Positions 9,901 to 64,000 of a stretch of DNA of 64,000 nt are shown in pieces (position 1 is the stretch's first letter; each line of letters opens with the position of its first letter). A model generated the notes under the pieces. That model did no database searches, was not told where the DNA came from, and worked only from the letters and a program-made list of their open reading frames with translations. Location: contig CAWUHX010000325.1 of NCBI GenBank assembly GCA_963922205.1, positions 1-64,000 of the forward strand. Direction: 5' to 3'. This DNA is from Romanomermis culicivorax (lineage: Eukaryota > Nematoda > Enoplea > Mermithida > Mermithidae). A program made the translations under genes and the position numbers.

Positions 9901-12900
9901 GGAAAAAAATTTCGAAATGAGGAAAAAAATTTTGGGGACGGTTCACATTGTGGAAAAAATTTTGGGGAATTCAAAACTGAAAAGATGCGTTTTGGTAGAC
10001 TTAAAAGGGTCAAAATCTCAAAATTTTCCGGCGCTTCGCGCCGGTCATGGGTTATAATCTTATCCATTTTCTATCAGGCGCGGCTGTTAACATATCTACT
10101 TCAACTTACTAATTAATGCTTCACAGTTTCTATCAACCAAGTTAGCTCGTTTCATTTTCTAATCGTAAGCAGTCAATTATGTCGCCCTAAATTGAGATTT
10201 CTCATCAATTCTCTCAATTTTTTCTCTCGATGCTTGAATTTTTTTTCAATGTTTGCAACCTGAACTTTTGCGTTTATTGAAGATGGAAATTGAAGCCATC
10301 ATTCTAGACTGCGCTCATGAATATCTGTTGGAGAGATTTATTTTCCGGTGTTTTAGAATATATAAACCCGAAAATTTTTCCGGCGCTTCGCGCCGGAATT
10401 TGAGACAAATTACACTTCATCAGTTTGATTTTAATTTATTTCTCAACGTTGTGAAGGTTCATTTTCCAGAGTTTTAGAAAGTGAAAATCCAAAAATTTTT
10501 CCGGCGCCCCGCGCCGGACCGAGAACTAAATAAAATTAGATGATTCTAATCGGAACCAGAAATGTTAATAGCGGATTTAGTCCTGAGAACTCTATCGTTA
10601 ACATGCTTCACCCGTTCCTGTAGAACTCCAATATATTCTTCATATGAGCTCATATTGACTAACATAACCAGAATTTTCTCATTTTTTTCCTCATTTTTGC
10701 AGGTTTCTGACTCCAAATAAGACAAAATGCTTGGATATGCTCCTAAAATGCATAAAAAATCATCCGTAGCCACATTATAAACGTTTGTAGAAATGAGAAA
10801 AATTTTGGGAGAATGAGGAAAAAAATTTTGGGTCCGGTTCTCATGTGGAAAAAATCTTCGAGGAAAAAAAACGGTGCGCCCCATATATTAATCAGTGTTT
10901 TTTTGTGTGCCGAAACCATACCTGTAATTGGGGGCGAGGTTGGGGGGGGGACCCCCAACTTGGCCAACCCTGTACCCAAAATCATTAACCCCCCAACCCC
11001 TCCCCCCAGTTTGGAAAAAATTAAAAAAATTTGCAAAAAAGTGTACGCTTCTTGGCCTTTTTTGGGAAAAATTTCGACTTTTTTCTACCCCCCCCCCCCA
11101 AAATTTTGGATTTACCCCCCCCCCCAACTGGTCGGAGGTCTTACAGGTATGTAATAGGTTATAGGGTTTTCTGTCCGGAGATGCATTTTTAGGAACGAGT
11201 ATATTGAAGCTGAAACTTTCAAATTTGCTCAAATTGGGCTTTTTCAAGTAGTTTCAGTGTTTTTTTTTGTGCCAAAACATGGTTTTTGGCACAAAAAAAT
11301 TTGGAATGGCACAAAAAATTTTGAGCGTTTGTGCCAATTGGCACAAATTTTTTTGGCTGGTCAAACATTGAATTTCCTTAATTTTTAGACGTTTTAGGGG
11401 CTGAAAATGCAAAAATTTTTCGGCGCTTCGCGCCGAATCAATGAATATAATATTTCCTATTCGTATATTTGACCCGAACGCGAACGATTTCTCTTTGAAC
11501 AGTGTATTAGTATCGTTGCAGCAAACTTTATAGGCTGTCAAGACTGATGAGTGAAAAGAAATTCTGAATATTCTCTCTTCATTCAGTCGATTCGGATTTA
11601 AAACTGAAATTGTTGCTTTTTGTGTTTGAAGAAGAAGAAAGAAGAAGAAAAATTTATTTTTCGAACGAAGAGAAAAGAACAAAAACACATGTTAGTCTAG
11701 AAAAAGAAATACAACGAACATCAAGATTATTGGTTATTAATGCAGTACAAAATGAAGAGCAATGTGAAAATGTTAGCATAATTGAAAAATCAAAAAATAC
11801 AGTGAGTGAAAGACAATATGAATTAATTTGCATACGGAGACATGCAGGTACAGAAGTACACTTACGCGCGCCTCGATGAACGAAAAGGAGAAATCAACAC
11901 AGAAATGAAGAGAAAAAAATCATATTATATTAATGTCCTCGTATAAATTTTGAAAAATCGATATCTTTAAGTTTTCGAGAAAAATTTTCTACTGAGGTTG
12001 CTTTTACGACGTGATCAGGTAATGTGTTCCATGTATGAACAACTCGTTTAGCAGAGCTATATTTGTCAATGTCAAGATGAGAATTGCCTATGTTGAGTTT
12101 AAATGAGTTTCTGGCTGTTTCAAATGGAAAAATTGATATCGTTGATAATGGCAGAATGTTTCGATCGAAAATCAACACGATTTTCGACTTTATTTTCTCT
12201 AGTCTTTACATGATTGTTAAATATACATAACGTAGATATTCGTTCGTAGTCGAAAATTGAATCAATTTGAACTTCCTGAACAATTCTAGAGCTATTTAAA
12301 TTGTCTCAGCATTCCATTTCTTTTTGGGATTTCGTGAACTATTTTGTTGCACAGTTTTTTCTCTTCTCACTGACATGGTTAGCTGAAAAATAGGTTGGGC
12401 ACGATTTTTACAAGAAATTAATGCGTTAAACAATAACTTTTTATCAAACTTTTGGCCTGAAACTTTTCCGCAGTTTTCAGTATGTCTCTAGTAAAAAAAA
12501 TTTTTGTGCCATTGGCACAAATTTTTTTGGCCTCTTGTGCCAATTGGCACAAATGTCCGTGCACAAAAAAAACGCTGAGTAGTTTGACACGAGAAAATCA
12601 ACCAGCACATTTTCAAAGCGCGGTGTGGCAAATACAGAAAAATCCTACCTACATCAAGAATCGAACCTGGTGCACCAGCCTATGGACTTAATGCGTGTAC
12701 CACTACACAATTTCCCCAGAAATTATCAACACTATATTCTTTTAAGACCTTTGATACTATTTGAACTAACAACTTTATTTGGAAGAGTCTCAACAGCGCT
12801 GCGCCCTTCGGGCGCAGCTGCTGTACCCTAAGCCTAAGCCTAAGCCTAAGCCTAAGAAAATTTACTCACTAATCACAGAAATCGATGAAAATCGAAATTA

Positions 12901-15900
12901 TTAAAATATTAAACTCAAATTAGATTTCCAAATTCGTTGACCTCCGACAATAAAGGGTAATATTTCCAACATGGTCTGAAAATTTGCATAATATGTAAAG
13001 TCTGAAAATAGTTATATATGTGTATTTTATGGCAAAATACCCTGCAGAATTTGAACCGGTCGTTCAAATTTCATCATTTTTTCTTTCCGCGCTTCCACTT
13101 TACCTCTAATAATCAAAAAATAACTATTTATGGTATCAACGCTGGGTAAGTTTATTTCGGGCGCTCAACGCCCGAAATGAATTTTACCCCATTTTTATGC
13201 GTTCTAAAATGGAAAAAGGTGAAAATGGGTTTCAATTCATTTATATTTTTTATATTATTCTAGTGCGCGGTTAGAAAAGGTCATTCTAGTTACTGCTTAT
13301 AGGTTCTATCTATCAAAATATTATTGATAAATGTTTGATCTGTATTGTTCTTTGACGAATTTGATGAAAACAAACATTTTTCTCGGTCATTTTCCCCTAA
13401 TTTTTTGGCGATCTTCATAAAAATTTTGACTTTAATGTGATTAAAACCTTTTGAGTGTAAGACAATGCTGGAAATTTTTGCCGATTTAAAAATCCAAATT
13501 CTAAGGCCCAAATTACAGAAAGTGGGTTAAACGTGGGTAAGTAAAATGGCGGGTAAAATCGTAGGTAAATAAAAGTCGAGTAAAATCTCGGGTAAAATCG
13601 TAGGTAAATAAAACTCGAGTAAAATCTCGGGTTAAAGCCGGGTAAAGTTCGGGTAAAATCGTGGGTAAAATGACGGGTTAAAGGCAGGTAAAATCGTGAG
13701 TAATTTTTTTTTACCATCGATTTTATCCAATTCGAGATTACTGAAAGTGAGTAAAGTAAAAGTCGGGTAAAAAGTTGATGAAAAAGACGTGAAAATAACC
13801 TGCTATTTTACCCGAACTTTACTCGGCTTTAACCCGAGATTTTAGTCGAGTTTTATTTAAGTACGATTTTACTCGACTTTTATATATCTACGATTTTACC
13901 CGCCGTTTTACTTTTACTCTTACCCACGTTTAACCCACTTTCTGTAATTTGGGCCTAAGTCGCTTGCCTAGTTTTTGAATTTTAGTTTGTCCGACTGAAA
14001 AATCATTAAAGTCACTGAGAAAGCAAACCTTCTGTCAGAAAAACAAGAAGTGAAAAACATACCTGTAATTGGGGGGACCCCACCCCAACTTGGCCAACCA
14101 TATACCCAACCCCCCCAGTTTGGAAAAAATTAGAAAAAATTGGCAAAAAAGTGTATGTTTTTGGCCTTTTTTGGGGAAAAATTTCGACTTTTTTCGACCC
14201 CCTCCCCCCAAATTTTGGATTTACCCCCTCCCAACTGGTCGGACCTCTTACACGTATGGTGAAAAGATTCATTTTCTAGCGTTTTAGAATATTGAAATCC
14301 AGAAAAAATTTTCGGCGCTACGCGCCGAACACATTACTCTAGTCTAGTCATATTAATCTTTTCATCTTCCCTCCAAAACTCAGAAAATTGGGTTTTAAAT
14401 GCCTAGAACCGACGCAAATCGAATGAAATACAAGAAAACTAGTTTTCGATGGTTTTTCCGTTAAATTTGAGCAAATTTATCGATTTTAGCGTGAGCAACC
14501 AAAACTTTATCTGTGCAACCAAAATTTTTCCCCAAGTTACACATTGCAACCTGGCCTATGCAAAAAAAACCCTGGTTTGTGCCCATTGGCTCAAAATTTT
14601 CGGTTGGTCAAATACTAAATTTCCTTGATTTCTAGGCGTTTTAGGGGCTGAAAATGCGAAAATTTTTCGGCGCTTCGTGACGAGTGAAAGAATCTTATTA
14701 CCTACTCGTATTTGACCCGAACGCGAAAGAGTTATCTTCGAATAGTGTATTAGTATCGTCACAGCATACTTTAAAGGCTGTCAATGACTGATGAATGAAA
14801 AGAAATTCTGAATATTCTGTCTTCCACGTCGATTTAAGTTGAATAGTTTGTATTCAAGAACAGATAGCTCTAAAAAAGCTTCGTGTAATAGAGTTCAGTA
14901 GGACGTTATTCACCCCAAATGAGAAAACCCGCCCTGAAAAGCTTCGTGTTTATCATAGCGGAATATGGCATTTTTGGCTACAGTAAACCATGATACCGAA
15001 ATGAATAAACGCGAGTGATATTCGAATATCGCAATGCTATATGTTGAAGACAATAGATAATTATGCAAAATTCACTACCGTACGTTGAAATTAGTTGCTT
15101 CTTTGCTGAGTTATATGTAATTATCCGAAATATTTTTTCATTTCATTGTTACTGTAGCAACGCTGCAACGAATTTTAATTTCTCCGCTGATGAGTTTACG
15201 TGCTTCATTCACATAATGCACACAGGGTATGGACAGGGTATGGATTTACCCTACCCTAAAAAATTTGGCGGAAGTTTACTATAGGCCAAAAATTTGACAA
15301 AAGTTCAGAATAGGCCAAAAATATAGTAAAGTAAAATGCAACAAACATTTTGAAAAGATTAGATTACAAAGAAAGATCAATGTGAAACACAGCTTATAAT
15401 TAATGTCAGCAAACAACTTTATTGAAGAATTATTGATACAAAAGACAATAAATGTTCATTTTAAAGTAAAAAAATTACTATATACCTGATTCCTGCAAAA
15501 AAATTACTTAAGGGCAAATTTTTGTCGTTTTCTATACCCTGGGACCCCTGACCGTGTGCATGTATGTTCATTCAGTCCTATTCGCATTTAAAACTGAAAT
15601 TCTTACTTTTTGTGTAAAATTGATTGAGATAGAAAAATCGATTTCCTTACTACAATGTTTCTACCGAAAATTTACACAATTTTTGACTTAATTTTCTCTA
15701 GAGTCTTACATCGTTGTTATATATATTATATATAACAGATATTTGTAGTCGAAAATTGAATTAATATGATCTCAACTTCCTAAGCAATTCTAGAGTTATT
15801 TAAATTTTCTAAGCATTCCTTTTCTTTTTGAGTCGTAAACCATTTTCTTGCACAGTTTTACTTTTTTCTTATCTAACTGATATAACTAGCTTGAAAAATA

Positions 15901-18900: not shown

Positions 18901-21900
18901 TGTTTGCTCTTCATGTATATATCTGCTGTCCAACTGATTACAATGCATAGGATTAAAATAAGCAAGGTGGAGTACTTTACTGTTATCAGGAGAGATATCG
19001 AGCTGTCAGACAGAAGACCGAACTGAAATTCTATCAAGATCTGCTTGGAGAATACAATTATTAGTAGAGGAGTTGAAAAAAAATTAAAAATCGTCAGCAA
19101 ACAAAAAAATATTGGACTTGATGTTGTCAGAAAGGTCATTTATATATAACAGGAATAGTGTTAGTCCCAAGACGCTGCCTTGTGGAACACCACTTGTGAC
19201 AGAAAAGAATTCAGAGAAATTGGTTTCTATATTAATTCGTTGATAGCGCTCTGAAGGAAAAGTAGATATCCAACTTTTTAGGCAATCTGATATTCCATAA
19301 CCTGTTAGTTTGAGTAATAATTAAGAGTGAGAATCAATACTTCTTGTCCATTAATTTTTACATTTTAGGAGCTGTAGTTCACAAGATTTACTGGGCAAAG
19401 AACCATATTGGTGTTGAGTCAAAAGAGGATTAGATTTCAGATAGCTGATCAGAGAATTGTTCATGATAGATTCCATAATTTTACAACTAACACAACATAG
19501 GGATATAGGCCTGTAATTTGGTGTAAAAGAGCGATCTACTTTCTTGAAAATTTGCAACACATTTGCTTTATTTCAGAAATTGGGCATTAAAGAAGTTCGG
19601 AAGGAAACTTCAAAAATACTAGTTAACGGAATGGCTAAGTGGTGTGCCAATTTTTTGTAGAGGTACGCAAATAAACCCTCAGGTCCAAGAGTATAGAAGG
19701 AATTCATTTTTTTGATTGCAGTTGTAACTAGTTCAACAGTGAATCGCACGGACGTAAGTTTTGATTTGTTTCTTATGGGGAAATCAGGAATGGAACAATC
19801 ATCAACCTTAAAGACATGATAAATAATCATTGAATAATCCACAGATTTTTTTACATCATAAACCACGGTATGGGCGTCTTTTCGTATGGGGGAATTTGAC
19901 TACTGGAGTTTAATTTAAAGTTTACGAAATTATAAAAGGATTTAGGGTTAGTTTTGCGAATTATTTTCTCTTCAATAGAAGCTAGTGTAAAGCATGAAAC
20001 TTATAGTTCAGTCTGCGATAGTTTTAGATGATTTTTACCTTTTCCATATAGAGTCAACTTTTTTCAAAATGCCTTCTTTATATTTTTGGGATAACATATT
20101 TTATTTGATCTGTGTTTAAAAAGAGGAGTATGTGCTGTAATCATGGGTTTGAGAACATTTAAGAAGGTGCAGTACATACCATTAACGTTAGCACAGCTGG
20201 TGAAGATGTCTGACCAAGAAATCAGTCTGAGTTTATAGCCAATTTCTATATAGCTGGCTTTACTTAAAATCAACGACGGACTCTGTTGGCATACATAGCT
20301 TCATTTTATCAGATGATAAAATTTTGAAATTAACACAGCAATGATCACTAGTAGAGAATGGTGCAGAAATATTAACATCAAGAGTTGTCACCAAAAACAA
20401 GATCGAGTATGCTATTTTCATGAGTAGGTTTCAATACAAACTGGTTCAAACCTAGACTTGAGACGGATTCAAAAAAATCCATATAAATTTCTTCATTGGG
20501 ATGAGATAGATCTAGCCAATTTAGCCTTGGTAAATTAAAATCGCCAGAGACGCACACGTGATAATTAACATGTGTTGTCCATACAAGAAATTCACATAAT
20601 AATTGACTTATTTCTGAACTAAGATAAGGAGGCCTATAGATTAGAACGGAGTGATGAGTAAATCCAGGCATTAATGACCAAAAGTTAATGATTCTGAAGA
20701 ATCAAACTCTGTAGGTGTCTCAATGAGTTAAACCTTAACCCGTTTTTTCGTGAAAACAGCTACGCCACCACCTCGCCTGCTCTTCCTGTCTTTTCTATAA
20801 ATTTTATAGTCATAAGAATTGAGAATTAAGCTATTTGGAATGTTGCTATGAAGTCGCGTTTCAGTGCATGATCCGATAACAATTTGCTCATTTAGTAAAT
20901 GCCTCAACCCTTCCAGTTTACACATAATACTGCTAGCATTAAAATAACAAACATGACAAATAATTACCTTTGGGAGACTTTTTAGTATGCTTCTAGTGGA
21001 ATTTTTTTTGTGCCATTGGCACAATTTTTTTTGGCTTTTTGTGCCAATGGGCACAAAAAACCTGCAAAAAACAGAAAAAAATTGTTTTTTAGTCAGGTCG
21101 TTCAAATTGGGCTAGTGAATGATTTGATGTTCTACAGGAGCTGAAAACATATTAACGATAGACTTCTCATGAATTTATCATTTCTGTCTTTTCGATCAGA
21201 GTTATCGAATTTAATTCGATTTATTTCTTAGTCCGGCCCAAAGCCCTGAAAAAATGATCAGATTTCCACCTTTAAAACGCTGGAACGAGAACCTTCACAA
21301 CGTTAATAAATTAAAATCAAACCAATAGAGTGTAATTTTTTCATTCCGACGCGAAGCGCCGGAAAATTTTTCGAATTTTTGTATTCTAAAACGCCGAAAT
21401 TAATCTGTGCAACAAATATTTCTGAATAGAAGCTCTAAATTTACAATCTAGAATGATATCTTCAATCTTCATCGTCAATAAATGCAAAACTTCACGTTGA
21501 AAATGTTAAAAAAATTCGAGGCTGCGAGAGAAAAAATTGAAAGGATTGATAAAAAATCTCAATTTTCGGTGGGATACTGGCTGTTAATAATTAGAAAATA
21601 AGACGAGGTAACTCAATTGATAGAAACTGTTGAGGGTTAATTAGTTAGTGAAAGTAGAAATGTAATCGTTAACAGTCAGTATTCCGCCGAAAATTGAGAT
21701 TTTAAATTAATTATCTCAAATTTTTCTCTCGGGGCTTAGAATTTTTCAGAAAATTTTTTATTTTGTGGAAGTTATGGAATGAATGTTAAAAAATGACGAT
21801 TTTTGATTTTTTGTAACAATTTGCTTATATCTTTTATCTAATTTTCTTATCGAACTTTACATAAAAATTTTTCACTGTCAGTCATTAGCACCCGTGCTAA

Positions 21901-48900: not shown

Positions 48901-51425
48901 GCAAAAAATTAAAATTTTCTCGATTTATTTTTGAATGTTGTATGAAATCTAAATTTTTGTATTTTTCATCACTATTCTATTTGTATGACGTCGGGAATCC
49001 AAATTTTTTCCTGTACGTTCGGAAATGCATTCGATATCCAATAATGTTTTTGGAATTGAGAAAGCTGAAAATTTATATAAGCATTAAAAGAAAATATAAT
49101 TCAAAATTCTGGCAAAATTCGATTTTTTCAGTTAAATTTCAGGCAGAATTTTGGGTTTTTCACATTTATTTTATCCATATGATGCCCGAATTCAAATTTT
49201 CCGAATATGTTTGGAAATTTTGTGTACCTGAAGAATGTTTTCGGAATAAGGGAAGTTGAGCGTTTAAGAAATTACGAGAAAATATAATTCGCAATCTAGG
49301 AATTTTTTGAATTTTTCAATGCAAATTTGCAGGTGTCATTTTCGAATTTTATTTAAAAACTAAAATTTTGCCTCGAACGTTAAATTCGTCATTAACATTC
49401 CATATGGATGATGCACGAATTCGAATTTATTTCGAAATTTTCAGGAAAATTCTCCATAAAGCACATTTGAAAATTTTCAAAAATTAAAATTTTTCCAGGT
49501 GTGAACTGTGAAGATGTATTTTTTGAGTTAAAAATTCAAGTTTAGGATAGAATTCTGAATGTCCGAATTGAATTCAAATTTTCTTAGATGTTTACGAAGA
49601 TTTTACATAAAAAGTATGTTTTTAAATTTGCGAGAGTTTAGAATTTTAAAAAAACTTGTTATCGGAATTTTAATAAATTTGGATTTCTCAAAAACATGCA
49701 AATTTTTCTTGATTTCATACCCGAATGAAGAATTTTTTAATAGTTGAAAGGTCAACAATTTTTTTCTAATTTGGAGAATTTATAAATTAAAAATTGATTT
49801 TTTCGGAAAAATGAAAACTTTCCGTAATTTCTGAATATCATATTCGAATTTGAATTTTTCCGGAGACGTTTTTTGAAGTCTTCTATATATCTAGCAACAG
49901 GGCCGTGCACAGGATTTTTTCATGGGGGGACGGACTAGATTTTTTCACTGAATAGCCCCAGAAAATGTTGATCTTACGCGGATATACTGTGTGCATCACC
50001 GTTTTTTCCTCGAAGATTTTTTCCACATGAGAACCGGACCCAAATTTTTTTCCTCATTTTCCAAAAATTTTCCACATTTTTAAAAACGCTTATAATGTGG
50101 CTACGGATGCTTTTTTATGCATTTTAAGAGCATACCCAAGCATTTTGTTGTATTTGTAGTCAGAAACTTGCAAAAATGAGGAAAAAATTGAGAAAATTCT
50201 GGTTATGTTAGTCAAAATGAGCTCATGAAGAATATATTGGTGTTCTACAGAATGGTCCGGCGCGGAGCGCCGAAAAAATTTTTTGATTTTCACTTAGCGC
50301 TGGAAAATGAACCTTCATAACGTTGGGAAATAAATTAAAATCAGACTGATGAAGCGTAATTTGCCTCCCATTCCGGCGCGAAGCGCCGGAAAAATTTTCG
50401 GGTTTTTGTATTCTAAAACGCTGAAAAATAAATCTCTCCATCAGATAATTCGTGAACAAATGTTTTGAAATCGCGTTCTAGAGTAATGTCTTCAATTTCC
50501 ACCTTCAATAAACGCAAAAGTTCAGATTGCAAACGTTTAAAAAATTCCAAACATCGAGAGAAAAAATTGAGAGACTTGATGAAAAATCTCTATTTTCGGC
50601 GACATAATTGACTGTAAACGATTAGAAAATGAAACGAGCTAACTTGATTGATAGAAACTGTTGAGCATTAATTAGTAAGTCGAAGTAGATATGCTAACGG
50701 CCGCGCCTGATAGAATATAGTTATAATTATATTCATGACCGGCGCAAAGCGCCGGAAAATTTTGAGATTTTGACCTTTTAAAGTCCATCAAAACGCATCT
50801 TTTTGGTTTAGAGTTACTGCCTCAACGGGGGGGGGGCGCCCTCCGCCCCCCCCTTGTGCACGGCCCTGCCTAGCAATTTATCTTTAATTGGAAAAGTTTA
50901 GAATTTAAATAATATAGAATTCTAAATTCTAGGAAAATTTGACGAGGTCCCAAATTTTGAAAATTCTTTTCATTTTTTAGCTACAAAATGTCATCCCAAA
51001 ATGACGAAATTCGACGACAAAAAAACCAATCTTGTGAATCTTGTACGAGTTTCAGCATTTCGCCTAGTACGACCAGTCACTCGAGGGAATGGTCGTTGTC
51101 GATTGGCGTCCCTTCATCGTCTGCGCTGGCCGAAAAACGCGTCATCAAGGAAGATGAAGAAATGCAACAAATTTCGCAAGTATTTTCCCCTCCCAAATCA
51201 TCCTTATCGTCGAAAATTGGTCAAAAAATGAAATTTCGAAGCCGCAGCGCTTCGAATTTAAAACGGAAAGAAACTCGGCGTCATACGTTAAGTAACGCTC
51301 GAGATGTGGAAAATATGGTACAAAAAGCGTTGGAAAAAAATCGAGCGGCGACGGAAGACGTTGACGCTTGCGTCAAAAAACGTAGCGGCGGGGCAAAATT
51401 TCGATTTTGGTTCGGAAAAGAATGA
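3685..51425 (+). CDS. RhoGAP with PH domain, ARHGAP21/23 (PAC-1) family; 18-exon gene
   Basis: Rho-family GTPase-activating protein; relatives inactivate CDC42 at cell contacts and polarise cells (family knowledge). Eighteen exons with matching phases and GT/AG borders sum to 5,283 nt, an uninterrupted 1,760-codon frame. Visible in order: a serine/asparagine-rich N-terminus; a YxxY...LLEDIR region like the conserved pre-PH segment of ARHGAP21; a PH domain at about residues 720-835 (KRKNVFRLTT, LFQAEEPDSMLQWLKA); a RhoGAP domain at about 1019-1215 with arginine finger R1043 in GVYRIPG, plus LLKAFLRRLPDPLL and NKMEAKNLALMFAPSI; a Glu/Asp-rich stretch at about 1270-1300; and a C-terminal RRHTLSNARD motif. 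No PDZ domain was found, so upstream exons may lie outside the window, or 3685 may be an alternative start. The introns are large and loaded with transposons. Coding exons have higher GC than the surrounding introns. Confidence 0.9.
4910..5092 (+). repeat. Dispersed repeat, third copy
   Basis: Same family as 2620-2800: ATATGTCGCATAGGACTG, CAGTAAAAGCGTTGTGTAAA, TTTACAAGCATTTTATAAAA, AGACTATAG. No inverted ends or target duplication could be set. Confidence 0.6.
5201..5419 (+). CDS. Small open frame of unknown nature (72 aa)
   Basis: Begins MVSPKSMLFVVFDKLDKE and runs 72 codons inside intron 1. It looks more protein-like in composition than nearby frames, but I recognise no domain. It may be a transposon remnant or chance. 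No promoter or splice evidence ties it to the host gene. Confidence 0.15.
   Translation: MVSPKSMLFVVFDKLDKETVIKINPLKLEDQMTSEVYFLVTLPSTMYSLPACIMVIGKNLLSSTWNLVGEDF
6636..7308 (+). CDS. RhoGAP gene exon 2
   Basis: Acceptor CTTTTCAG|AATCC and donor CCAGGAG|GTGATA; enters after 1 base and leaves after 2. It encodes KKTYRHYELFITKLE and FFRLLEDIRAENN, resembling the WKxYxxY...RLxxLR segment N-terminal to the PH domain in ARHGAP21/23, then WATSYSLDTG and a lysine-rich tail. Codon use is GC-richer than the flanking introns. Confidence 0.85.
7309..9242. other. RhoGAP intron 2
   Basis: AT-rich, non-coding. It holds one hAT-like short element (8589-8962). The acceptor is the T-rich TTTTTTTCAG. Confidence 0.7.
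8589..8962 (+). mobile_element. hAT-like MITE, 374 bp, CATACATGC ends
   Basis: Ends are CATACATGCGC and GTGCATGTATG. The flanks are GCAATGAT (8581-8588) and GCAATAAT (8963-8970), a 7/8 match, so an 8-bp target duplication. The phrase CTGACCCCCAGCAGA occurs twice inside. The ends resemble those of 15212-15566. Confidence 0.75.
9243..9343 (+). CDS. RhoGAP gene exon 3
   Basis: One base completes the serine codon split by exon 2, then KESETPEDDQSTSTRRQESF and MRAVLHMDPEHHR. Donor CGAA|GTGAGT. The RRQ(E)S(Y/F)xxAV pattern is like the pre-PH linker of ARHGAP21 (RHQSYILAV from memory). Confidence 0.88.
9466..9820 (+). CDS. RhoGAP gene exon 4
   Basis: Acceptor AGTTTCAG and donor GACAG|GTAATT. It encodes DLRELDRRTKRRISYIKATN, a serine-rich linker and RSISNDQPINRKSLDWSK. 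It enters with 2 bases and leaves with 2. Followed by the 17-kb intron 4. Confidence 0.88.
10028..10044. repeat. GC hairpin CCGGCGC-TTC-GCGCCGG
   Basis: Perfect 7-bp stem with 3-base loop; on the other strand the loop is GAA, giving the core GCGAAGC. Preceded by AAAATTTT. Confidence 0.85.
10380..10396. repeat. GC hairpin CCGGCGC-TTC-GCGCCGG
   Basis: Identical to the copy at 10028 and 352 bp from it, in the same element. Confidence 0.85.
10501..10517. repeat. GC hairpin, loop CCC
   Basis: Same 7-bp stem with a changed loop. The stem is kept while the loop varies. Confidence 0.8.
10893..11151 (+). mobile_element. hAT-like family A MITE inside a GTGCC-family end
   Basis: CATACCTGTAA (10917) to TTACAGGTATG (11151) are the family A ends. 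The body has long C/G runs and the CAACTTGGCCAACC and CAACTGGTCGG words shared with 14058-14258, 17487-17774 and 40915-41570. It is preceded at 10893 by CAGTGTTTTTTTGTG, a truncated end of the family at 11255. No matching 8-mers flank it, so this copy is rearranged. Confidence 0.65.
11421..11435. repeat. GC hairpin CGGCGC-TTC-GCGCCG
   Basis: 6-bp stem with TTC loop, preceded by AAAAATTTTT, inside the element 11255-12577. Confidence 0.8.
11930..12178 (-). pseudogene. LINE reverse-transcriptase C-terminal remnant
   Basis: Reads SSAKRVVHTWNTLPDHVV then KATSVENFSRKLKDIDFSKF. This is the standard end of CR1/Jockey-type LINE ORF2 (RVVxxWNxLPxxVVxAxSVxxFKxxLD). Only the tail is left, embedded in a hAT-like element. 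Confidence 0.7.
12650..12712 (-). repeat. tRNA-derived (SINE-like) fragment
   Basis: On the minus strand, TAGTGGTAC (A-box-like) is followed at normal spacing by AGGTTCGATTC, a perfect B box. The stems do not pair well enough for a working tRNA. A SINE head or tRNA pseudogene is likeliest. Confidence 0.4.
12798..12818. repeat. GC hairpin GCTGCGCCC-TTC-GGGCGCAGC
   Basis: 9-bp perfect stem with the same TTC/GAA loop but a different stem. It lies next to the CCTAAG array. Confidence 0.75.
12827..12856 (-). repeat. Interstitial telomere-type repeat (CCTAAG)5, i.e. TTAGGC
   Basis: Five perfect 6-base units. TTAGGC is the nematode telomere repeat. It lies inside intron 4, not at a chromosome end. 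Confidence 0.8.
13154..13178. repeat. GC hairpin ATTTCGGGCG-loop-CGCCCGAAAT
   Basis: 10-bp perfect stem with loop CTCAA. Unrelated stem sequence, but the same general type in AT-rich DNA. Confidence 0.65.
13505..13955. mobile_element. Foldback element with TAA duplication, Harbinger-like (451 bp)
   Basis: Ends GGCCCAAATTACAG and CTGTAATTTGGGCC are exact inverted repeats. TAA lies on each side (13502-13504, 13956-13958), as in PIF/Harbinger insertions. The arms of about 200 bp are built of variant GGGTAAAATCG units, so the element can fold on itself. No transposase. Confidence 0.65.
14058..14258 (+). mobile_element. hAT-like family A MITE (201 bp)
   Basis: Ends CATACCTGTAA and TTACACGTATG. 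Flanks GTGAAAAA (14050-14057) and GTGAAAAG (14259-14266) match 7/8. This is the shortest intact-looking family A copy. Confidence 0.8.
14313..14327. repeat. GC hairpin CGGCGC-TAC-GCGCCG
   Basis: 6-bp stem kept, loop changed to TAC. A broken relative lies near 14668. Confidence 0.75.
14575..16005 (+). mobile_element. Truncated copy of the GTGCC-family element, with insertions
   Basis: Aligns with 11280-11600 (GTGCCCATTGG, GTTTTAGGGGCTGAAAATGC, TTTGACCCGAACGCGAA, GTGTATTAGTATCGT) and 15655-16000 with 12179-12480. Both outer ends are missing. It is interrupted by the MITE 15212-15566 and probably by another insert at about 14835-15200 (CACGT...ACGTG flanked by CTTC). Confidence 0.6.
15212..15566 (+). 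mobile_element. hAT-like MITE, 355 bp
   Basis: Ends CATAATGCACAC and GTGTGCATGTATG. Perfect 8-bp duplication TTCATTCA at 15204-15211 and 15567-15574. It is inserted in the truncated GTGCC-family copy. Confidence 0.8.
16277..16745 (-). pseudogene. LINE ORF2 C-terminal remnant
   Basis: Minus strand reads RPILEYRSTVWNPF, VQRKVSKRLF, LSYEERLKALYPERLETR, then stops, then IIWNNLPSDAINASSLQSF and KNKIMMIDFSKF before the end. This is the classic LEYxxxVWNP...LP...ASSLxxFK tail of CR1/Jockey-like LINEs. Two in-frame stops and a shift make it dead. Confidence 0.75.
16942..17350 (-). pseudogene. hAT transposase C-terminal (dimerisation) remnant
   Basis: Minus strand reads IRHIFWKYYSDQYHQEYEHI, PSLIRIVLVLPIGNADAERG, FSIVNPIRP, a stop, then ITGLKPDTIPALISIRVNGP and a lysine-rich tail (TRKKRKKRMKRK). 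The pattern N-A-D-x-E-R-x-F-S before the C-terminus is the hallmark of the hAT dimerisation region, here like the ZNF862/DUF4371-type branch. One in-frame stop and no N-terminal half. It is a plausible relic of the enzyme family that moved the nearby MITEs. Confidence 0.65.
17487..17774 (+). mobile_element. hAT-like family A MITE (288 bp)
   Basis: Ends CCTACCTGTAA (one change) and TTACAGGTATG, with the shared internal words of family A and long G/C runs. Flanks TAAAAACG and GGAGAACG match only 5/8, so the duplication is eroded. Confidence 0.65.
17939..18685. mobile_element. hAT-like element with GTGCTAA palindromes, inserted in a LINE (747 bp)
   Basis: Ends CAGGGTTTTAGCACGG and CGTGCTAAAAAAAACCCTT. 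Flanks CTCTCACG and CCCTTACG match 6/8. TTAGCACGGTGCTAA-type palindromes sit near both ends. A second, truncated inverted copy lies at 21735-21961. It interrupts the LINE frame at 18686. On the minus strand 18086-18345 has a faint coding trace. Confidence 0.65.
18086..18345 (-). pseudogene. Possible transposase tail remnant inside the hAT-like element
   Basis: Minus strand reads EPHFNFNTRSRLIFPDNVQL in one frame, then after a shift VKEVRGESNSDSSYSHLLYK and an acidic end (SDEENEDINE). RSRLxPxNV is reminiscent of hAT C-termini, but the match is weak and the frame is broken. Confidence 0.3.
18686..21000 (-). pseudogene. Degenerate LINE retrotransposon, CR1/Jockey-like
   Basis: The minus-strand order is endonuclease then reverse transcriptase. 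Endonuclease pieces: CETRLHSNIPNSLI-like segment and RKSRRGGGVAVF at 20728-20990, then SGDFNLPRLNWLDL and ENSILDLVFGD at 20378-20671. RT pieces: TPNYRPISLCCVSCKIMES at 19351-19560, the catalytic box FADD at 19090-19101 followed at once by a stop, and VKDLGVLISQYLSFENHINS at 18790-18948. Many stops and shifts; inactive. A hAT-like element interrupts the 3' part. Its 5' edge abuts a GTGCC-family end at about 21001-21064. Confidence 0.8.
21001..21064. mobile_element. End of a GTGCC-family hAT-like element
   Basis: Two palindromes (TGTGCCATTGGCACA and GTGCCAATGGGCAC) then GCACAAAAAACCTG, matching the right end of 11255-12577. The other end was not located. Confidence 0.5.
21110..21735 (-). mobile_element. 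Hairpin-family fragment
   Basis: Reverse-complement match to 10150-10640 and direct match to 50230-50690 (CCTTCACAACGTTAATAAA, ATTCTAAAACGC, GAGAGAAAAAATTGA). It contains the hairpin at 21346. The ends are lost. Confidence 0.6.
21346..21362. repeat. GC hairpin with GAA loop, one mismatch
   Basis: CCGACGC-GAA-GCGCCGG; one stem position has changed. Confidence 0.7.
21735..21961 (-). mobile_element. Truncated inverted copy of the GTGCTAA-family element
   Basis: The reverse complement of 21775-21961 (CCGTGCTAATAGAAATTTC, GCACGGGTGCTAATGACTG) aligns with 17960-18110. It ends at 21961 with CATAGTTTTA in place of CAGGGTTTTA. Confidence 0.55.
22296..22673 (+). CDS. 125-codon open frame, no recognised product
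   Basis: One of the longer frames outside the host gene. It has no domain, no splice link and no codon bias that I can see. It may be a relic or chance in AT-rich DNA. Confidence 0.1.
   Translation: MCTKISIKVCGYFEVKKLMTEIWAFYIVRLKYAYKCKEFCDASKLVISKIPQFCVFLKRQCLQGPISWMHQVLLVLHNWMNNTAFLQKLLSSRKCLVTPLLYVKIWNSLHRNKLVFINFLFLLYV
22675..22870. mobile_element. Short hAT-like MITE with TTAGCCAATGGCTA palindrome (196 bp)
   Basis: Ends CACTGTTTTTTAGC and GGCAAAAAAATACTG. Flanks CGTTTAAC and TATTTAAC match 6/8. A GTTAGCCAATGGCTAG palindrome lies inside. Ends are imperfect. Confidence 0.45.
25568..25591. repeat. AT microsatellite
   Basis: Uninterrupted (AT)12, 24 bp. Confidence 0.95.
26852..26893 (+). 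CDS. Possible 42-nt cassette exon of the RhoGAP gene
   Basis: The acceptor TTATTCAG is good. The 42 bases are a multiple of three in the phase required between exons 4 and 5 and would add about 14 residues (core IPGSLAGPTPEVG). The donor that keeps frame (GGTAG|GTCTAT) is weak, while the stronger donor 5 bases upstream (TTG|GTAGGT) breaks it. Confidence 0.25.
   Translation, partial: NSRVSCWTHSRGW
26972..27326 (+). CDS. RhoGAP gene exon 5
   Basis: Acceptor CTCTTGCAG and donor CAACAG|GTGGGA. One base completes a serine split from exon 4, so the phase match across the 17-kb intron is exact. Low-complexity Ser/Thr/Ala, then APYEPFRSPSPSNFLDRRN and GVQKIFNFFTGGETSQQQ. Leaves at phase 0. Confidence 0.85.
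27327..28535. other. RhoGAP intron 5
   Basis: T-rich on the sense strand; no repeat or exon recognised. Confidence 0.6.
28536..28701 (+). CDS. RhoGAP gene exon 6
   Basis: Acceptor TTTTCCCAG. It reads NLSTLNKEEEKILDSEIGGG then RRRRLCCNPSPSTSRAVF and a Thr/Gly-rich end. Two donors compete: AATA|GTGAGC at 28701 and GGAAGA|GTAAGA at 28733. Only the first keeps frame with the acceptor at 32745, so it is preferred. The second would add about 11 residues and need another acceptor. Confidence 0.7.
29480..30493 (+). mobile_element. hAT-like element with TTTGTACATGTACAAA palindromes (1,014 bp)
   Basis: Ends CAGTGTTTTTTCCGAAGG and AAAAAAACCCTG. Perfect 8-bp duplication GCTGGAAC at 29472-29479 and 30494-30501. 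Subterminal palindromes CATTTGTACATGTACAAACG and CGTTTGTACATGTGCAAATG. A decayed hairpin-family stretch lies at 29610-29680. Same family as 43973-44813, opposite orientation. Confidence 0.85.
30720..30771. repeat. Perfect 11-bp inverted repeat, 52 bp overall
   Basis: GGAGTTGTCCA and TGGACAACTCC enclose 30 bp. No target duplication. Nature unknown. Confidence 0.5.
31133..31480. repeat. Degenerate minisatellite, GGTTGATTCCCTG-type units
   Basis: About 15 units of roughly 20-24 bp built on GGTTGATTCC(C)TGATTGGT, clearest at 31133-31320 and decaying to the right. Confidence 0.75.
31663..32109 (-). mobile_element. hAT-like family B MITE (about 447 bp)
   Basis: Ends CATACATTAAC and TTACATGTATG. 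Reverse-complement match to 40980-41413 and 47978-48407 (GCTAGCCATATGGTCGACGA, CCGGGGTCAGTAATTCC). An A-rich TTTTCAAATTCAAA tract is expanded at 31745-31860. Flanks share TGTAGGC with one base shift. Confidence 0.7.
32745..33127 (+). CDS. RhoGAP gene exon 7 (first half of PH domain)
   Basis: Acceptor AAACTTTTAG and donor GATTCA|GTGAGA. A Ser/Gly-rich stretch, then RQKRNICLPCAGLLRDGPLT, RRFNEKVWRHYWSVLHNSKI and YLCKQKP. This is the PH beta-1 to beta-4 region, matching the WKQMYVVLRGHSLYLYKDK segment of human ARHGAP21 (from memory). Leaves at phase 0. Confidence 0.88.
33128..34559. other. RhoGAP intron 7
   Basis: AT-rich, no repeat or exon recognised. Acceptor TTTTTCACAG. Confidence 0.65.
34560..34766 (+). 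CDS. RhoGAP gene exon 8 (second half of PH domain)
   Basis: 69 codons in phase 0. VIDIEGCIADIAYDYHKRKN, VFRLTTQNQNEHLFQAEEPD, SMLQWLKAVQCC. The KRKNVFRLTT and LFQAE..DxMLxWxKxxQ words are nearly identical to those of human ARHGAP21, which makes the family call firm. Donor AAT|GTAAGA. Confidence 0.95.
35755..36085. repeat. tRNA-like foldback (inverted SINE pair)
   Basis: Outer arms ATTTGAAAAATAGAG and CTCTATTTTTCAAAT. A perfect 37-bp inner stem pairs 35899-35935 with 35984-36020 across 48 bp. tRNA B-box-like words occur in both arms (GTTCGACTCC, GGTTCACGACC). The left arm carries an extra tRNA-like unit at about 35760-35830 on the minus strand (TGGTCTAATGGTGAGGAC ... AGTTCGACTCC). Its stems are imperfect, so it is not a working tRNA. 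Confidence 0.6.
36556..36915 (-). CDS. Open frame of 119 aa, unknown, inside intron 8
   Basis: Begins with a basic coiled stretch (MKRLQSKKIEKKKRKLRK), which is partly the purine-rich complement of the intron, then continues with a mixed sequence (YYIVQFINFVEDHNALKTLA). Longest protein-like frame not explained by the host gene or a known transposon. No domain recognised. Confidence 0.2.
   Translation of the reverse strand: MKRLQSKKIEKKKRKLRKMMKQLESERKENFSTSSLPLYQLSNENSTKFTITPPKYYIVQFINFVEDHNALKTLARSNTCTTYIPFQTTRLLYHERYKICDINFKGLCIKVDPVCSNDS
37630..38008 (+). CDS. RhoGAP gene exon 9
   Basis: Acceptor CTTTTTTAG and donor AAAAGG|GTATAG. LNNSMALIVKRYEAAQSHS follows the PH domain as the LISRRIKEYNNL segment does in human ARHGAP21. 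The rest is a Ser/Ala/Thr-rich linker. Leaves after 1 base, matching exon 10. A second donor 6 bp downstream (ATAG|GTTGTT) would also keep frame. Confidence 0.85.
38009..38711. other. RhoGAP intron 9
   Basis: Very T-rich on the sense strand; nothing else seen. Confidence 0.65.
38712..38872 (+). CDS. RhoGAP gene exon 10
   Basis: Acceptor TTCTACTAG and donor GAC|GTAAGT. SVKSRKWRKVRKSGSCPSGP sits where human ARHGAP21 has GTWRKGIPSIMRK before its RhoGAP domain; then a Gly-rich stretch and CVTSGDND. Phase 1 in, phase 0 out. Confidence 0.85.
38953..39090 (+). CDS. RhoGAP gene exon 11 (start of RhoGAP domain, arginine finger)
   Basis: 46 codons in phase 0, acceptor CTCTCTACAG, donor GAAAAT|GTGAGT. 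YIPLIVRLCVKVVEHYGLNT then IGVYRIPGNTAAVNALISSL. The arginine of GVYRIPG (codon 39025-39027) is the catalytic finger inserted into the Rho GTPase site. Preceded by an 80-bp intron. Confidence 0.96.
40693..40708. repeat. Decayed GC hairpin with GAA loop
   Basis: CCGGGGC-GAA-GCGCCG, one stem change, followed by AAAAATTTTTTG as in other copies. A short hairpin-family remnant surrounds it (about 40660-40800). Confidence 0.6.
40980..41413. mobile_element. hAT-like family B MITE nested in family A (434 bp)
   Basis: Ends CATACATGTAA and TTACATGTATG. Perfect 8-bp duplication TACCCAAC at 40972-40979 and 41414-41421, both copies being family A sequence. It carries a GC hairpin at 41210. Confidence 0.92.
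41210..41223. repeat. GC hairpin GGCGC-TTC-GCGCC inside family B
   Basis: 5-bp stem, TTC loop, preceded by CAATTTTCT. Related copies are at 31934 (GCGAAGCGC) and 48200 (GCGCTTCGCGCC) in the other family B elements. Confidence 0.75.
41734..41904 (+). CDS. RhoGAP gene exon 12 (RhoGAP domain)
   Basis: 57 codons in phase 0. DFNDSRWRDVNVVSSLLKAF, LRRLPDPLLTDRFYLEFIQA. The K and R of LLKAFLRRLPDPLL are among the conserved GTPase-binding residues. Acceptor TTATTTTCAG, donor ACG|GTAAAA. Confidence 0.96.
41998..42087 (+). CDS. RhoGAP gene exon 13 (RhoGAP domain)
   Basis: 30 codons in phase 0: IHKLPRANYETTKYLMFHLR, RIVQHSEINK. It matches the LPxxxYETLKxLxxHLxxV helix of RhoGAP domains. Flanked by short introns. 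Confidence 0.95.
42159..42284 (+). CDS. RhoGAP gene exon 14 (RhoGAP domain)
   Basis: 42 codons in phase 0: MEAKNLALMFAPSIIRPGSD then MVSHMSDQCKIIESLILY. The asparagine of KNLA is a conserved GAP residue. Donor TAC|GTAAGT. Confidence 0.96.
42588..42738 (+). CDS. RhoGAP gene exon 15 (end of RhoGAP domain)
   Basis: CDWLFSAPETSPGDRTPPLT, then MEKHDLYSPPEMSELLSRMV. CDWLF corresponds to the HDWFF that closes the domain in ARHGAP21. Acceptor TTCTTCAG, donor GAAG|GTGAAA, leaving after 1 base. Confidence 0.92.
42739..43478. other. RhoGAP intron 15
   Basis: Contains the MITE 43006-43293; the remainder is AT-rich and featureless. Confidence 0.7.
43006..43293. mobile_element. Ac-like hAT MITE with GGACCCGGACCCG tandem motifs (288 bp)
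   Basis: Ends TAGAGATGTATCGGG and CCCGATACATCTCTA, similar to the Ac/hAT end TAGGGATG. Flanks ATGTTTAC and GTGTTTAC match 7/8. The body repeats GGACCCGGACCCGATATT followed by AAAATTTT about five times, and an internal copy of the right end lies near 43135. Confidence 0.8.
43479..43884 (+). CDS. RhoGAP gene exon 16 (charged linker)
   Basis: Enters with 2 bases, leaves with 2. A basic stretch (RRNSRKSSTK), a run of Asp/Glu (NDDDDDAEEDEDDEEEENE), Thr-rich, then a basic KRRQNDYNE. Likely disordered. Acceptor TTTCTTGCAG, donor TTTTAG|GTGAGG. Confidence 0.88.
43973..44813 (-). mobile_element. hAT-like element with TGTACA palindromes and a zinc-finger remnant (841 bp)
   Basis: Ends CAGTGTTTTTTTTTGTAC and GGCAAAAAAAACACTG. 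Flanks ATTGTTTA and ATTATTTT match 6/8. Palindromes CATTTGCACATGTACAAACG and CGTTTGTACATGTACAAATG. Its right end is the same as the left end of 29480-30493, so it is the same family in the opposite orientation. A short coding remnant lies at 44184-44330. Confidence 0.8.
44184..44330 (-). pseudogene. hAT transposase N-terminal zinc-finger-like remnant
   Basis: 48 codons from ATG to TAA: KFNPTWLKIFTWLR, then IESRKAYCQVCKDEKANSTW. A (K/R)Fxx(x)WLxxFxWL motif followed by CxxC within about 20 residues is the start of the KRAB-like/TTF-type zinc finger of ZNF862-like hAT transposases (family knowledge). The His pair expected further on is missing, and a stop follows. It sits inside a hAT-like element with intact ends. 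Confidence 0.55.
46503..47204 (+). CDS. RhoGAP gene exon 17 (longest exon)
   Basis: Enters with 1 base, leaves with 2. Starts with a helix SEAEELRRLREEQLYTARRI, then ITGPPLDAESLTPDVFSDRS, LSPETREKIRQFQAESRKFS and a long Asn/Ser/Gln-rich stretch. The acceptor is ...TTTTGTCCGCAG, the donor AACGAA|GTAAGA. Confidence 0.9.
47978..48407. mobile_element. hAT-like family B MITE (430 bp)
   Basis: Ends TATACATGTAA and TTACATGTATG. Flanks GGAGTGCC (47970-47977) and GGAGTGTC (48408-48415) match 7/8. Same word order as 40980-41413. Confidence 0.85.
50257..50272. repeat. GC hairpin, loop GGA
   Basis: CGGCGC-GGA-GCGCCG; equivalent to the third hairpin (10501) of 9866-10876. Confidence 0.8.
50373..50389. 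repeat. GC hairpin CCGGCGC-GAA-GCGCCGG
   Basis: Perfect 7-bp stem; equivalent to the hairpin at 10380. Confidence 0.85.
50739..50755. repeat. GC hairpin CCGGCGC-AAA-GCGCCGG
   Basis: Perfect stem, loop AAA; equivalent to the hairpin at 10028. Confidence 0.85.
50981..51425 (+). CDS. RhoGAP gene last exon (18) with stop
   Basis: Acceptor CATTTTTTAG; one base completes the codon from exon 17. It ends at TGA 51423-51425. Contains MKFRSRSASNLKRKETRRHT followed by LSNARDVENMVQKALEKNR and a C-terminal FRFWFGKE. RRHTL near the C-terminus also occurs in ARHGAP21/23 proteins (from memory). It closes the 1,760-codon frame. Confidence 0.93.
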
Positions 51426-53462: not shown

Positions 53463-53466
53463 ATCT

Positions 53467-54741: not shown

Positions 54742-54745
54742 ATCT

Positions 54746-56160: not shown

Positions 56161-56164
56161 AGTG

Positions 56165-60102: not shown

Positions 60103-60245
60103 ACCCGTACGCACGTGCGGAACAGTTTTGCGACCTGCCAATGTGCGGCCAAAATGCGGGTTGTCAAAATATACTTCAGCCAAAAATGCGCATGTGGCCT
60201 CATTGCGGGCCGCATTTGAATATATTTAACCGTACGCGTACGGGT
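60103..60245. mobile_element. Short element with perfect ACCCGTACGC ends, copy 1 (143 bp)
   Basis: ACCCGTACGC and GCGTACGGGT are a perfect 10-bp inverted repeat. The same 143-bp unit, with flanking similarity from about 60089 to 60312, recurs at 63035-63258. No target duplication seen, because the similarity runs past the ends. Confidence 0.6.
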
Positions 60246-60314
60246 GTGAGGGACGGCTGGAAAATCAAGTACAATCGTGCGCCATGAACAAAAAACGATA
60301 GTTTACAAGTATGA

Positions 60315-60500
60315 CATGCTAACGACCGCGCCTGATAGAAACTAGTTAAGGTCATACCCATGACCGGCGCAAAGCGCCGGAAAAATTTGATATTTTGACC
60401 CTTTTAAGTCCACCAAAACGCATCTTTTCGGTTTTGAATTCCCCAAAATTTTTTCCTCAATGATAACCATACCCAAAATTTTTTTCCTCATTTCGAAATT
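60315..60500 (-). mobile_element. Hairpin-family fragment
   Basis: GCTAACGACCGCGCCTGATA, the GC hairpin at 60364, AGTCCACCAAAACGCATCTT and CCCCAAAATTTTTTCCTCA match the reverse complement of 9900-10090. Truncated on both sides. Confidence 0.65.
60364..60380. repeat. GC hairpin CCGGCGC-AAA-GCGCCGG
   Basis: Perfect 7-bp stem, loop AAA, as at 50739. Confidence 0.85.
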
Positions 60501-62166: not shown

Positions 62167-62175
62167 CAGTTGTAG

Positions 62176-63034: not shown

Positions 63035-63043
63035 TATATACTT

Positions 63044-63186
63044 ACCCGTACGCACGTGCAGAGTAGTTTTGCGACCTGCCAATGTGCGGCCAAAATGCGG
63101 GTTGTCAAAATATACTTCAGCCAAAAAAGTGCATGCAGTCTGATTGCGAACCGCATTTGAATATACTTAACTGTGCGCGTACGGGT
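63044..63186. mobile_element. ACCCGTACGC-ended element, copy 2
   Basis: Same ends and body as 60103-60245 (CGACCTGCCAATGTGCGGCC, AATGCGGGTTGTCAAAATAT). Followed, as in copy 1, by CGTGCGCCATGA, AAAAAACGATAGTTTACAAG and then a hairpin-family start. Confidence 0.6.
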
Positions 63187-63268
63187 GTGCGGAAGGGCTG
63201 GAAAATCTAGTACAATCGTGCGCCATGAGTAAAAAACGATAGTTTACAAGTGCTAACAGCCGCGCTTG

Positions 63269-63868
63269 TGTCGGGGATGGACATAGTCTATCTCCAGGTT
63301 GCGAAGAAATAGCCAAAGTCGACGCAAATCGCGTCGATGCCGATTTGCATAGACACCGCGCATAAAAATGCCGGTCGTCTATGTTTTTGGTCATTCTTTG
63401 ATTTATTGTTTATTTTATAATAAAGTGAATTGGCGGCCAGTTGGCCATATTATTATAATATTATTTTATATTATTTTTGTGGAGTTTTACGCCTGAAATA
63501 CAATGTCCCCCCGCCGGGCATTCGTTGGATTTCTCGCAGCGGAGGGAATGCAGGTTAGACCCCGGATTTCTGGAGTGCCACCCAGCGTGCAAGTCTGCAT
63601 TTACAACTCAATTCTCGGCCTGACTTCTAGGTTTGCCCCTGTTTTGAAGTTACTTGAGCTCAGAGAGTTATTTAATCTTCTGCAGTTCTTTGGAATGAAA
63701 GCAGGAGATCTTTGTTGATTTTGAGACTGACCGAACTGTTGCAAACTTATTCTACCTAAGGTTTCGGCCTGATTAGGTGAATTAGCAAATGACTGATTAG
63801 GTCTATTTTTGATATCAAATCATTTATTGATATTTCTCAACTTCCACCAAAGTCTCATTTCAACACCT
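63269..63868 (+). other. About 600-bp insert splitting a hairpin-family fragment
   Basis: The hairpin-family word GACCGCGCCTGATAG (intact at 60315-60340) is broken here: TGCTAACAGCCGCGC ends near 63268 and CTGATAGAAACTAG resumes near 63868. The insert has a GC-richer start and a 71-codon frame at 63503-63718 (MSPRRAFVGFLAAEGM...) with no known domain. Its ends show no clear inverted repeats. Confidence 0.4.
63503..63718 (+). CDS. 71-codon open frame, unknown
   Basis: ATG at 63503, GC-richer than the surroundings, with GVPPSVQVCIYNSILGLTSR and a leucine-rich end. A possible donor (GCAG|GTTAGA) lies inside. It could be an exon of an unrecognised gene or part of the insert. No evidence decides. 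Confidence 0.15.
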   Translation: MSPRRAFVGFLAAEGMQVRPRISGVPPSVQVCIYNSILGLTSRFAPVLKLLELRELFNLLQFFGMKAGDLC

Positions 63869-64000
63869 GATAGAAACTAGTTAAGATTATATCCATGATC
63901 GGCGCGAAGCGCCGGAAATTTTGAGATTTTGACCTTTTTAAGTCCACCAAAACGCATTTTTTCAGTTTTGAATTCCCCAAAATTTTTTCCTCAATGGGAA
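63869..64000 (-). mobile_element. Hairpin-family fragment running off the window
   Basis: CTGATAGAAACTAGTTAAG, the GC hairpin at 63900, AGTCCACCAAAACGCAT and CCCCAAAATTTTTTCCTCA follow the same order as 60330-60460. Confidence 0.65.
63900..63914. repeat. GC hairpin CGGCGC-GAA-GCGCCG
   Basis: 6-bp perfect stem with GAA loop (core GCGAAGC). Confidence 0.85.

What the first reader, a model, noticed from the sequence alone, without database searches (positions are those of the whole stretch)
10028..63914. A recurrent GC hairpin, CCGGCGC-GAA-GCGCCGG, shared by otherwise different transposon families
About fifteen copies on both strands in AT-rich DNA. The stem is kept while the loop changes (TTC, GAA, AAA, CCC, GGA, TAC), and compensated stems occur. 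It contains GCGAAGC, known as an exceptionally stable DNA mini-hairpin. It sits in the 9866 family (three per element), in family B, in the GTGCC family and in 49898-50868. It may be a transposase or host-factor site, a cruciform, or a mobile mini-hairpin in its own right, comparable to GC clusters of yeast mitochondria.
Basis: partly seen in the sequence, partly recalled or inferred. Interest (0 to 1): 0.75.

Follow-up and report, generated by a model that had tools for sequence, protein, structure and literature searches.

The report
Hairpin module shared by hAT transposons
The repeated GC hairpin is the end of a small conserved internal piece of a large clan of non-autonomous hAT-type jumping genes; it spreads inside those elements and their composites rather than by itself, and why it was kept while their ends changed is not known.

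Summary
The motif is real: 14 matches in the window against 0.19 expected, and 8092 stem-perfect sites in the 359-Mb eukaryotic genome against 0 for the reversed pattern. It is not free-standing. It is the 3' end of a polarised 65-bp module: a 48-bp AT-rich arm (U) plus the 17-bp hairpin (H). The module is an inherited internal part of non-autonomous hAT-like elements with 8-bp target duplications, starting 111-131 bp from one tip in 9 of 9 elements. Across eight core families the next 48 bp outward are unalignable, while U and H are conserved. Two families with other tips carry it inside larger captured pieces; three transposase-bearing elements examined lack it. Within one family, 100 copies chosen by their flanks show no stem compensation. 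One pair is compensated (C-G to T-A) in two family-level lineages. Hairpin-less copies are deletions with varied ends, not clean empty sites. So the free mini-hairpin reading is not supported. A cis-acting role in active founder elements is inferred, not shown; some 3' hairpins are broken at family level, which counts against a strict need.

The parts
9866..10876 (+). Element A: non-autonomous hAT-like element, tips CACCGTTTTTTT.../...AAAAAAAACGGTG, target duplication CGCTCCAT / CGCCCCAT (7 of 8)
9980..10044 (+). 5' module of element A: U arm 9980-10027, hairpin 10028-10044
10332..10396 (+). first 3' module of element A: hairpin 10380-10396
10453..10517 (+). second 3' module of element A (121 bp on): hairpin 10501-10517
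11255..12577 (+). GTGCC-family hAT-like element, tips CAGTGTTTTTTTTTGTGC.../...GCACAAAAAAAACGCTG, exact target duplication AGTAGTTT
11372..11436 (+). module of the GTGCC element; hairpin 11420-11436 with compensated outer pair (T-A)
14264..14328 (+). 3' module of a C2-type element remnant; hairpin 14312-14328 with outer pair T-A, loop TAC
14626..14683 (+). decayed GTGCC-type module; hairpin about 14667-14683
21346..21410 (-). A-type 3' module in a decayed copy; hairpin 21346-21362; a second, more decayed one at 21224-21296
29480..30493 (+). Element F: hAT-like, tips CAGTGTTTTTTCC.../...ACAAAAAAACCCTG, exact target duplication GCTGGAAC; decayed 5' hairpin 29651-29667, 3' module (30109-30162) with the hairpin deleted
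40693..40757 (-). module in a decayed element; hairpin 40693-40709
40980..41413 (+). Element J: tips CATACATGTAATTGGGG.../...TTACATGTATG, target duplication TACCCAAC; hairpin 41209-41225 near its middle, U-arm homology not demonstrated; another copy at about 47979-48407
49898..50868 (-). Element H: composite with tips CAGGGCCGTGC, target duplication TCTAGCAA / CCTAGCAA (7 of 8), enclosing the right end and interior of an element A; hairpins 50257-50273, 50373-50389, 50739-50755
60364..60428 (-). A-type 5' module fragment; hairpin 60364-60380
63899..63963 (-). A-type 5' module fragment; hairpin 63899-63915

Best explanation
The hairpin is the inner end of a 65-bp module (48-bp AT-rich arm ending in AAAATTTT, then CCGGCGC-TTC-GCGCCGG) that belongs to an old clan of non-autonomous hAT-superfamily transposons. 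Shown: elements of the clan make 8-bp target duplications, carry one module 111-131 bp from one tip and often one or two more further in, all in the same orientation, and the hairpin multiplies as a passenger when they transpose. Shown: elements of other hAT-like families (H, I) acquired it when a module-bearing element became enclosed in them and the composite was amplified through the outer tips. Shown for family A: after insertion the hairpin decays like the rest of the element, without compensation; in the wider sample it is often lost by short deletions. Inferred: in the founder copies that gave rise to families the 5' module was kept while the adjacent subterminal sequence turned over completely, so it probably did something in cis at the active stage, most likely at the DNA level as part of the extended hAT end (a bent AT tract with an extrudable GC hairpin seen by the transposase assembly or a host factor).
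For: Polarised unit with sharp inner edge at the hairpin. 9 of 47 tip pairs have an 8-bp duplication (8 exact), 0 of 47 at three shifted offsets; 9 of 9 carry the module, 111-131 bp from the tip. 16 of 19 exact-duplication pairs in 325 kb hold a module match, including weak or nested ones. Eight core families: mean identity U 0.737 (shuffled 0.578, highest 0.607), H 0.887 (0.604, 0.655), next 48 bp outward 0.575 (0.564, 0.589), next 48 bp inward 0.639 (0.574, 0.603), the 48 after that 0.583 (0.559, 0.590). U alone recognises the held-out families GTGCC, C and C2, 0 of 200 shuffles as high for each of six sequences. H contains the right tip of A; I contains an extra 430-490 bp relative to two transposase-bearing relatives, ending in an F-type tip. 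Within-family decay without compensation. Pair 1 compensated in two lineages.
Against: Families were found through the hairpin, and most sampled stretches were picked near hairpins, so hairpin conservation is partly ascertainment. Several 3' hairpins are broken at family level (E: CCGGCGTTTCAGGCAGG in related copies; C: CCGATGCTCTGCACCGC). Three transposase-bearing hAT elements lack the module, so it is not needed by those transposases; no transposase-bearing member of the core clan was found. RNAalifold gives almost no covariation term (-0.03), and the count of further pair types is not above shuffles (379 of 500). J shows the hairpin without detectable U homology.
Confidence: 0.7

Rival explanations
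1. Neutral relic: the module has no function; it is simply the best-preserved shared stretch of a recent radiation from one ancestor plus composite capture, seen through a hairpin-based search.
For: No constraint on stem over loop within family A; family-level loss of some 3' hairpins; transposase-bearing relatives without it.
Against: The next 48 bp outward are at shuffled level while U and H are well above it in the same eight families at nearly constant spacing; two lineages have a compensated outer pair.
Confidence: 0.35
2. Recombination joint: the palindrome promotes breakage and template switching during gap repair, so that elements exchange ends near it; its presence in unlike families is a trace of that.
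For: Two U arms of different families meet head to head on one hairpin at L014:988-1106. 14 of 101 module copies have a deletion of 6 nt or more touching the 17-nt hairpin; among copies at least 93% like their nearest relative, 5 such deletions in 17 nt against 3 in about 143 nt (my sorting of the rows). Family I has a junction inside U.
Against: Junctions of H lie outside the hairpin; 33 of the 101 copies also have deletions elsewhere, many in poorly aligned downstream sequence; only one head-to-head case was seen.
Confidence: 0.2
3. Transcript-level role: U+H was part of a promoter, leader or terminator in an ancestral transposase gene.
For: Fixed orientation and position near the 5' tip; on the other strand the hairpin is followed by AAAATTTT.
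Against: No coding member of the core clan was found; no Rfam match at the hairpins; RNA folding terms show little covariation.
Confidence: 0.15
4. Mobile mini-hairpin comparable to GC clusters of yeast mitochondria.
For: Hairpin in J without detectable U homology; thousands of copies.
Against: Of the module copies found here nearly all carry U in fixed register; hairpin-less copies have 13 different end pairs in 14 cases; traced gains involve pieces of hundreds of bp.
Confidence: 0.04

Closest known systems
hAT superfamily, non-autonomous elements (Hermes/Ac/Tol2 type; Hermes described in PMC10368747, passages seen)
   Same: 8-bp target duplications, short tips, family-specific short palindromic words repeated next to the tips; the paper's passages say hAT end requirements can reach far beyond the terminal repeats (about 200 for Tol2), which is where the 5' module lies.
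   Different: A shared internal AT arm plus GC hairpin across families with different subterminal words is not described in the passages I saw; several tips (CACCG, CACTG, CATAG, CATAC) do not fit the YARNG consensus that I recall.
piggyBac internal inverted repeats (PMC2874221, one passage seen)
   Same: Short internal inverted repeats placed asymmetrically inside the ends of a DNA transposon.
   Different: Other superfamily and target (TTAA); separate repeats at the two ends rather than one compact hairpin.
GC clusters of yeast mitochondria (recalled)
   Same: Many short GC-rich hairpins in AT-rich DNA.
   Different: Those are described as free-standing insertions in mitochondrial DNA; here the hairpin is a part of nuclear DNA transposons.
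Helitron 3' hairpin (recalled)
   Same: Short GC hairpin near one end.
   Different: Here tips are inverted repeats with 8-bp duplications and the hairpin is 180 bp or more from the tip.
d(GCGAAGC) mini-hairpin (search listing only)
   Same: The minus-strand loop region GCGAAGC is present.
   Different: No biological role of that stability is shown here.

Membership tests
hAT superfamily (core clan A, E, F, C2, GTGCC) | 8-bp target site duplications | tested here: met
   9 of 47 tip pairs, 8 exact at length 8, 0 exact at lengths 5, 6, 7, 9, 10; 0 of 47 at shifted offsets.
hAT superfamily (core clan A, E, F, C2, GTGCC) | Tips of the YARNG type (consensus recalled) | tested here: inconclusive
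   CAGTG, CAGGG, CAGCG fit; CACCG, CACTG, CATAG do not.
hAT superfamily (core clan A, E, F, C2, GTGCC) | hAT transposase in an autonomous relative | tested here: inconclusive
   None found for the core clan; 150 scored of 1837 candidates with PF05699 in the genome, three loci fetched.
hAT superfamily (family I) | hAT transposase in an autonomous relative with the same tips | tested here: met
   L036 and L037: PF05699, tips TAGGGATGGGCCGG, duplications TTACTGTA and TCGGATAG, alignable to L030. Whether their genes are intact was not tested.
hAT superfamily (family H) | hAT transposase in an element with similar tips | tested here: inconclusive
   L035: 864-aa frame with PF05699 and DUF4371, tips CAGRGCCGTGCC, duplication CTATTGGC; similarity to H seen only at the outermost bases.
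Free-standing mobile hairpin (GC-cluster type) | Empty sites lacking exactly the hairpin | tested here: not met
   14 hairpin-deleted copies, 13 different end pairs, in the 325 kb held.
Helitron | No terminal inverted repeats, no target duplication | tested here: not met
   Inverted tips and 8-bp duplications.

The most novel reading that the evidence does not exclude
A portable cis-acting DNA hairpin module that raises the success of hAT-type non-autonomous elements whatever their transposase: it is kept while the transposase-binding ends are replaced, and families driven by unlike transposases (tips CAnnGTTTTTT, CAGGGCCGTGC, TAGGGATGGGCCGG, CATACATG) have each taken it up.
Probability: 0.15. 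Interest if true: 0.75.

Novelty: new variant of a known kind. Interest (0 to 1): 0.4.

Why it matters
If the module acts in cis, it would show that the extended ends of hAT elements hold a structural part that outlives changes of transposase specificity, and it would explain part of the success of very large non-autonomous families. If it does not, the case still documents step by step how a striking repeated hairpin in many transposon families can arise from descent and composite capture alone.

Tried and rejected
Chance: rejected. Free mini-hairpin: see rivals. CpG decay as cause of apparent compensation: genome sample CpG observed/expected is 0.925, so strong methylation-type decay is unlikely. 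Helitron 3' end: rejected on tips and duplications. Known RNA family: only a tRNA-like match at 35757-35828, not at the hairpins. A conserved structure in U: RNAalifold predicted only four inner pairs of the hairpin; single-strand DNA folds vary in U. An early between-family comparison mis-anchored family B and was redone without the weaker families. In one search the seven A copies gave only 1.7% stem changes, but those copies were mostly fetched through exact hairpins, so I rely. The organism was not identified. Literature: six searches gave no description of this module; I read passages of two papers and only listings otherwise.

Not answered: single changes at pair 1 (TCGGCGCNNNGCGCCGG), the second-family test (CAAAATTTT N17 TTATAACTT) and the genome-wide deletion count (CAAAATTTTN{0,16}TCATGGGTA), because the genome search machine was busy.
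Full report
Observation. CCGGCGC-NNN-GCGCCGG with up to 3 mismatches occurs 14 times in the window, 0.19 expected. The window lies in a eukaryotic genome of 359 Mb in 595 contigs, where the exact stem occurs at 8092 sites and the reversed control at 0. I fetched twenty 10-kb stretches, five further stretches chosen near hairpins and small pieces; sampling was therefore not random (some stretches were picked from hairpin lists).

A module, not a hairpin. When copies are oriented by flank, each related copy reads AT-rich arm, then hairpin. BLAST between families stops at the inner edge of the hairpin and about 48 bp before it. The arm's typical form is AAAAGATGCATTTTGGTGCATTTTAGAAGGTCAAAATCTCAAAATTTT in 5' modules, and a related form with CAGCGTTTTAGAA in 3' modules. 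A profile of U alone, trained without families GTGCC, C, C2, I and J, recognises all six GTGCC, C and C2 sequences better than 200 shuffles each; I is borderline (1 of 200 as high); the three J sequences are not recognised.

The carriers are hAT-like. Pairing tips CAnnGTTTTT with AAAAACnnTG and asking for 8-bp flanking duplications gives 9 of 47 pairs with at most one mismatch, 0 of 47 at offsets 3, 5 and 11, and exact matches only at length 8. All 9 carry modules, the first starting 111-131 bp from one tip: families A, E, F, C2 and GTGCC. A second scan demanding exact duplications and similar tips in 325 kb gives 19 pairs, 16 with a module match (some weak; L021:1841 holds a nested element and L029:519 is probably spurious) and 3 without (L012:3442, L013:4679, L029:4794). 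J elements (tips CATACATGTAATTGGGG) also show 8-bp duplications: by my reading, 5 of 9 exact, 2 of 9 with one mismatch, 2 of 9 none. Each core family has its own repeated subterminal words (GTGGAAA, GCAACC, GTGCC, GGCTTGT and others), as expected for hAT transposase sites (Hermes, PMC10368747, passages).

Conservation between families. In eight core families U (0.737) and H (0.887) exceed every one of 100 shuffle means, the 48 bp outward do not (0.575 against a highest of 0.589), the 48 bp inward do weakly (0.639 against 0.603), the next 48 do not. So the ends turned over while the module stayed. The families were recognised by the hairpin, which inflates the H value.

Decay within a family. 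100 copies listed by their flanks alone show 56 stem-exact hairpins; substitutions 5.4% per stem site and 7.0% per loop site; 4 double changes (2 Watson-Crick) against 2.0 expected. Genome-wide pair 2 shows 1138 single and 93 double changes, about 40 expected: a mild excess that older subfamilies could give. Pair 1 is different: 2537 T-A sites, present as the family state in GTGCC and in the C2-type 3' module; near relatives of the latter show C-A or C-G. Across 20 family representatives 6 cells have both sides changed, 1.7 in shuffles (0 of 500 as high); 3 pairs do, 12 of 500 as high; further pair types are not above shuffles (379 of 500). RNAalifold's covariation term is -0.03. I read this as slight family-level maintenance and none after insertion.

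Loss and gain. Of 102 copies whose U reaches its inner end, 59 have a hairpin at least 14 of 17 like the consensus; 14 of 101 with a close relative have a deletion of 6 nt or more touching it, with 13 different end pairs; 33 of 101 have deletions elsewhere. These are secondary losses. Gains: element H (window 49898-50868, L032, L034) has tips CAGGGCCGTGC around the right tip and interior of an element A, whose left 100 bp or so are missing. Family I (L030, L008) equals the transposase-bearing elements L036 and L037 plus 430-490 bp that hold the hairpin and end in an F-type tip. L036 and L037 have 8-bp duplications and hAT dimerisation domains and no module; L035, an 864-aa transposase element with tips resembling H, has none either.

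Mechanism. Shown: amplification as a part of hAT-like elements, spread by composites, neutral decay in family A, frequent deletion. Inferred: a cis role of the 5' module in founder elements; its place within about 200 bp of the tip fits the long end requirements quoted for hAT elements. Against strict need: broken 3' hairpins in families E and C and module-free transposase elements. Alternatives are a relic, a recombination joint (two arms head to head on one hairpin at L014:988-1106) and a transcript role; they are not exclusive.

Verdict. A real, structured, previously unlisted (in my six searches) internal module of hAT-like non-autonomous elements; a new variant of a known kind, not a new mobile element.

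Noticed in passing
window 13145-13190: A separate long palindrome, GGGTAAGTTTATTTCGGGCG...CGCCCGAAATGAATTTTACCC, beside a C2-type copy whose own hairpin has been deleted.
   Followed up: partly
window 10905-11151, 14100-14258, 17599-17774, 41416-41571: Another short C-rich repeat family with ends ACCTGTAA/TTACAGGT, in many copies, some next to hairpin elements.
   Followed up: no
L014:988-1106: Two U arms of different element families face each other across a single hairpin.
   Followed up: partly
window 23365-23755: An element related to the insert of family I (70-73% identity) whose U-like stretch has no hairpin.
   Followed up: partly
G000: 1837 first-look candidates for the hAT dimerisation domain in one genome, 150 scored; L035 has an open frame of 864 aa.
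   Followed up: partly
L015:7700-8822, L027:106-2048: Open frames that look to me like parts of Polinton-type elements (recalled resemblance, not searched).
   Followed up: no
L026:6137-6855: Long array of a short tandem repeat open in several frames.
   Followed up: no
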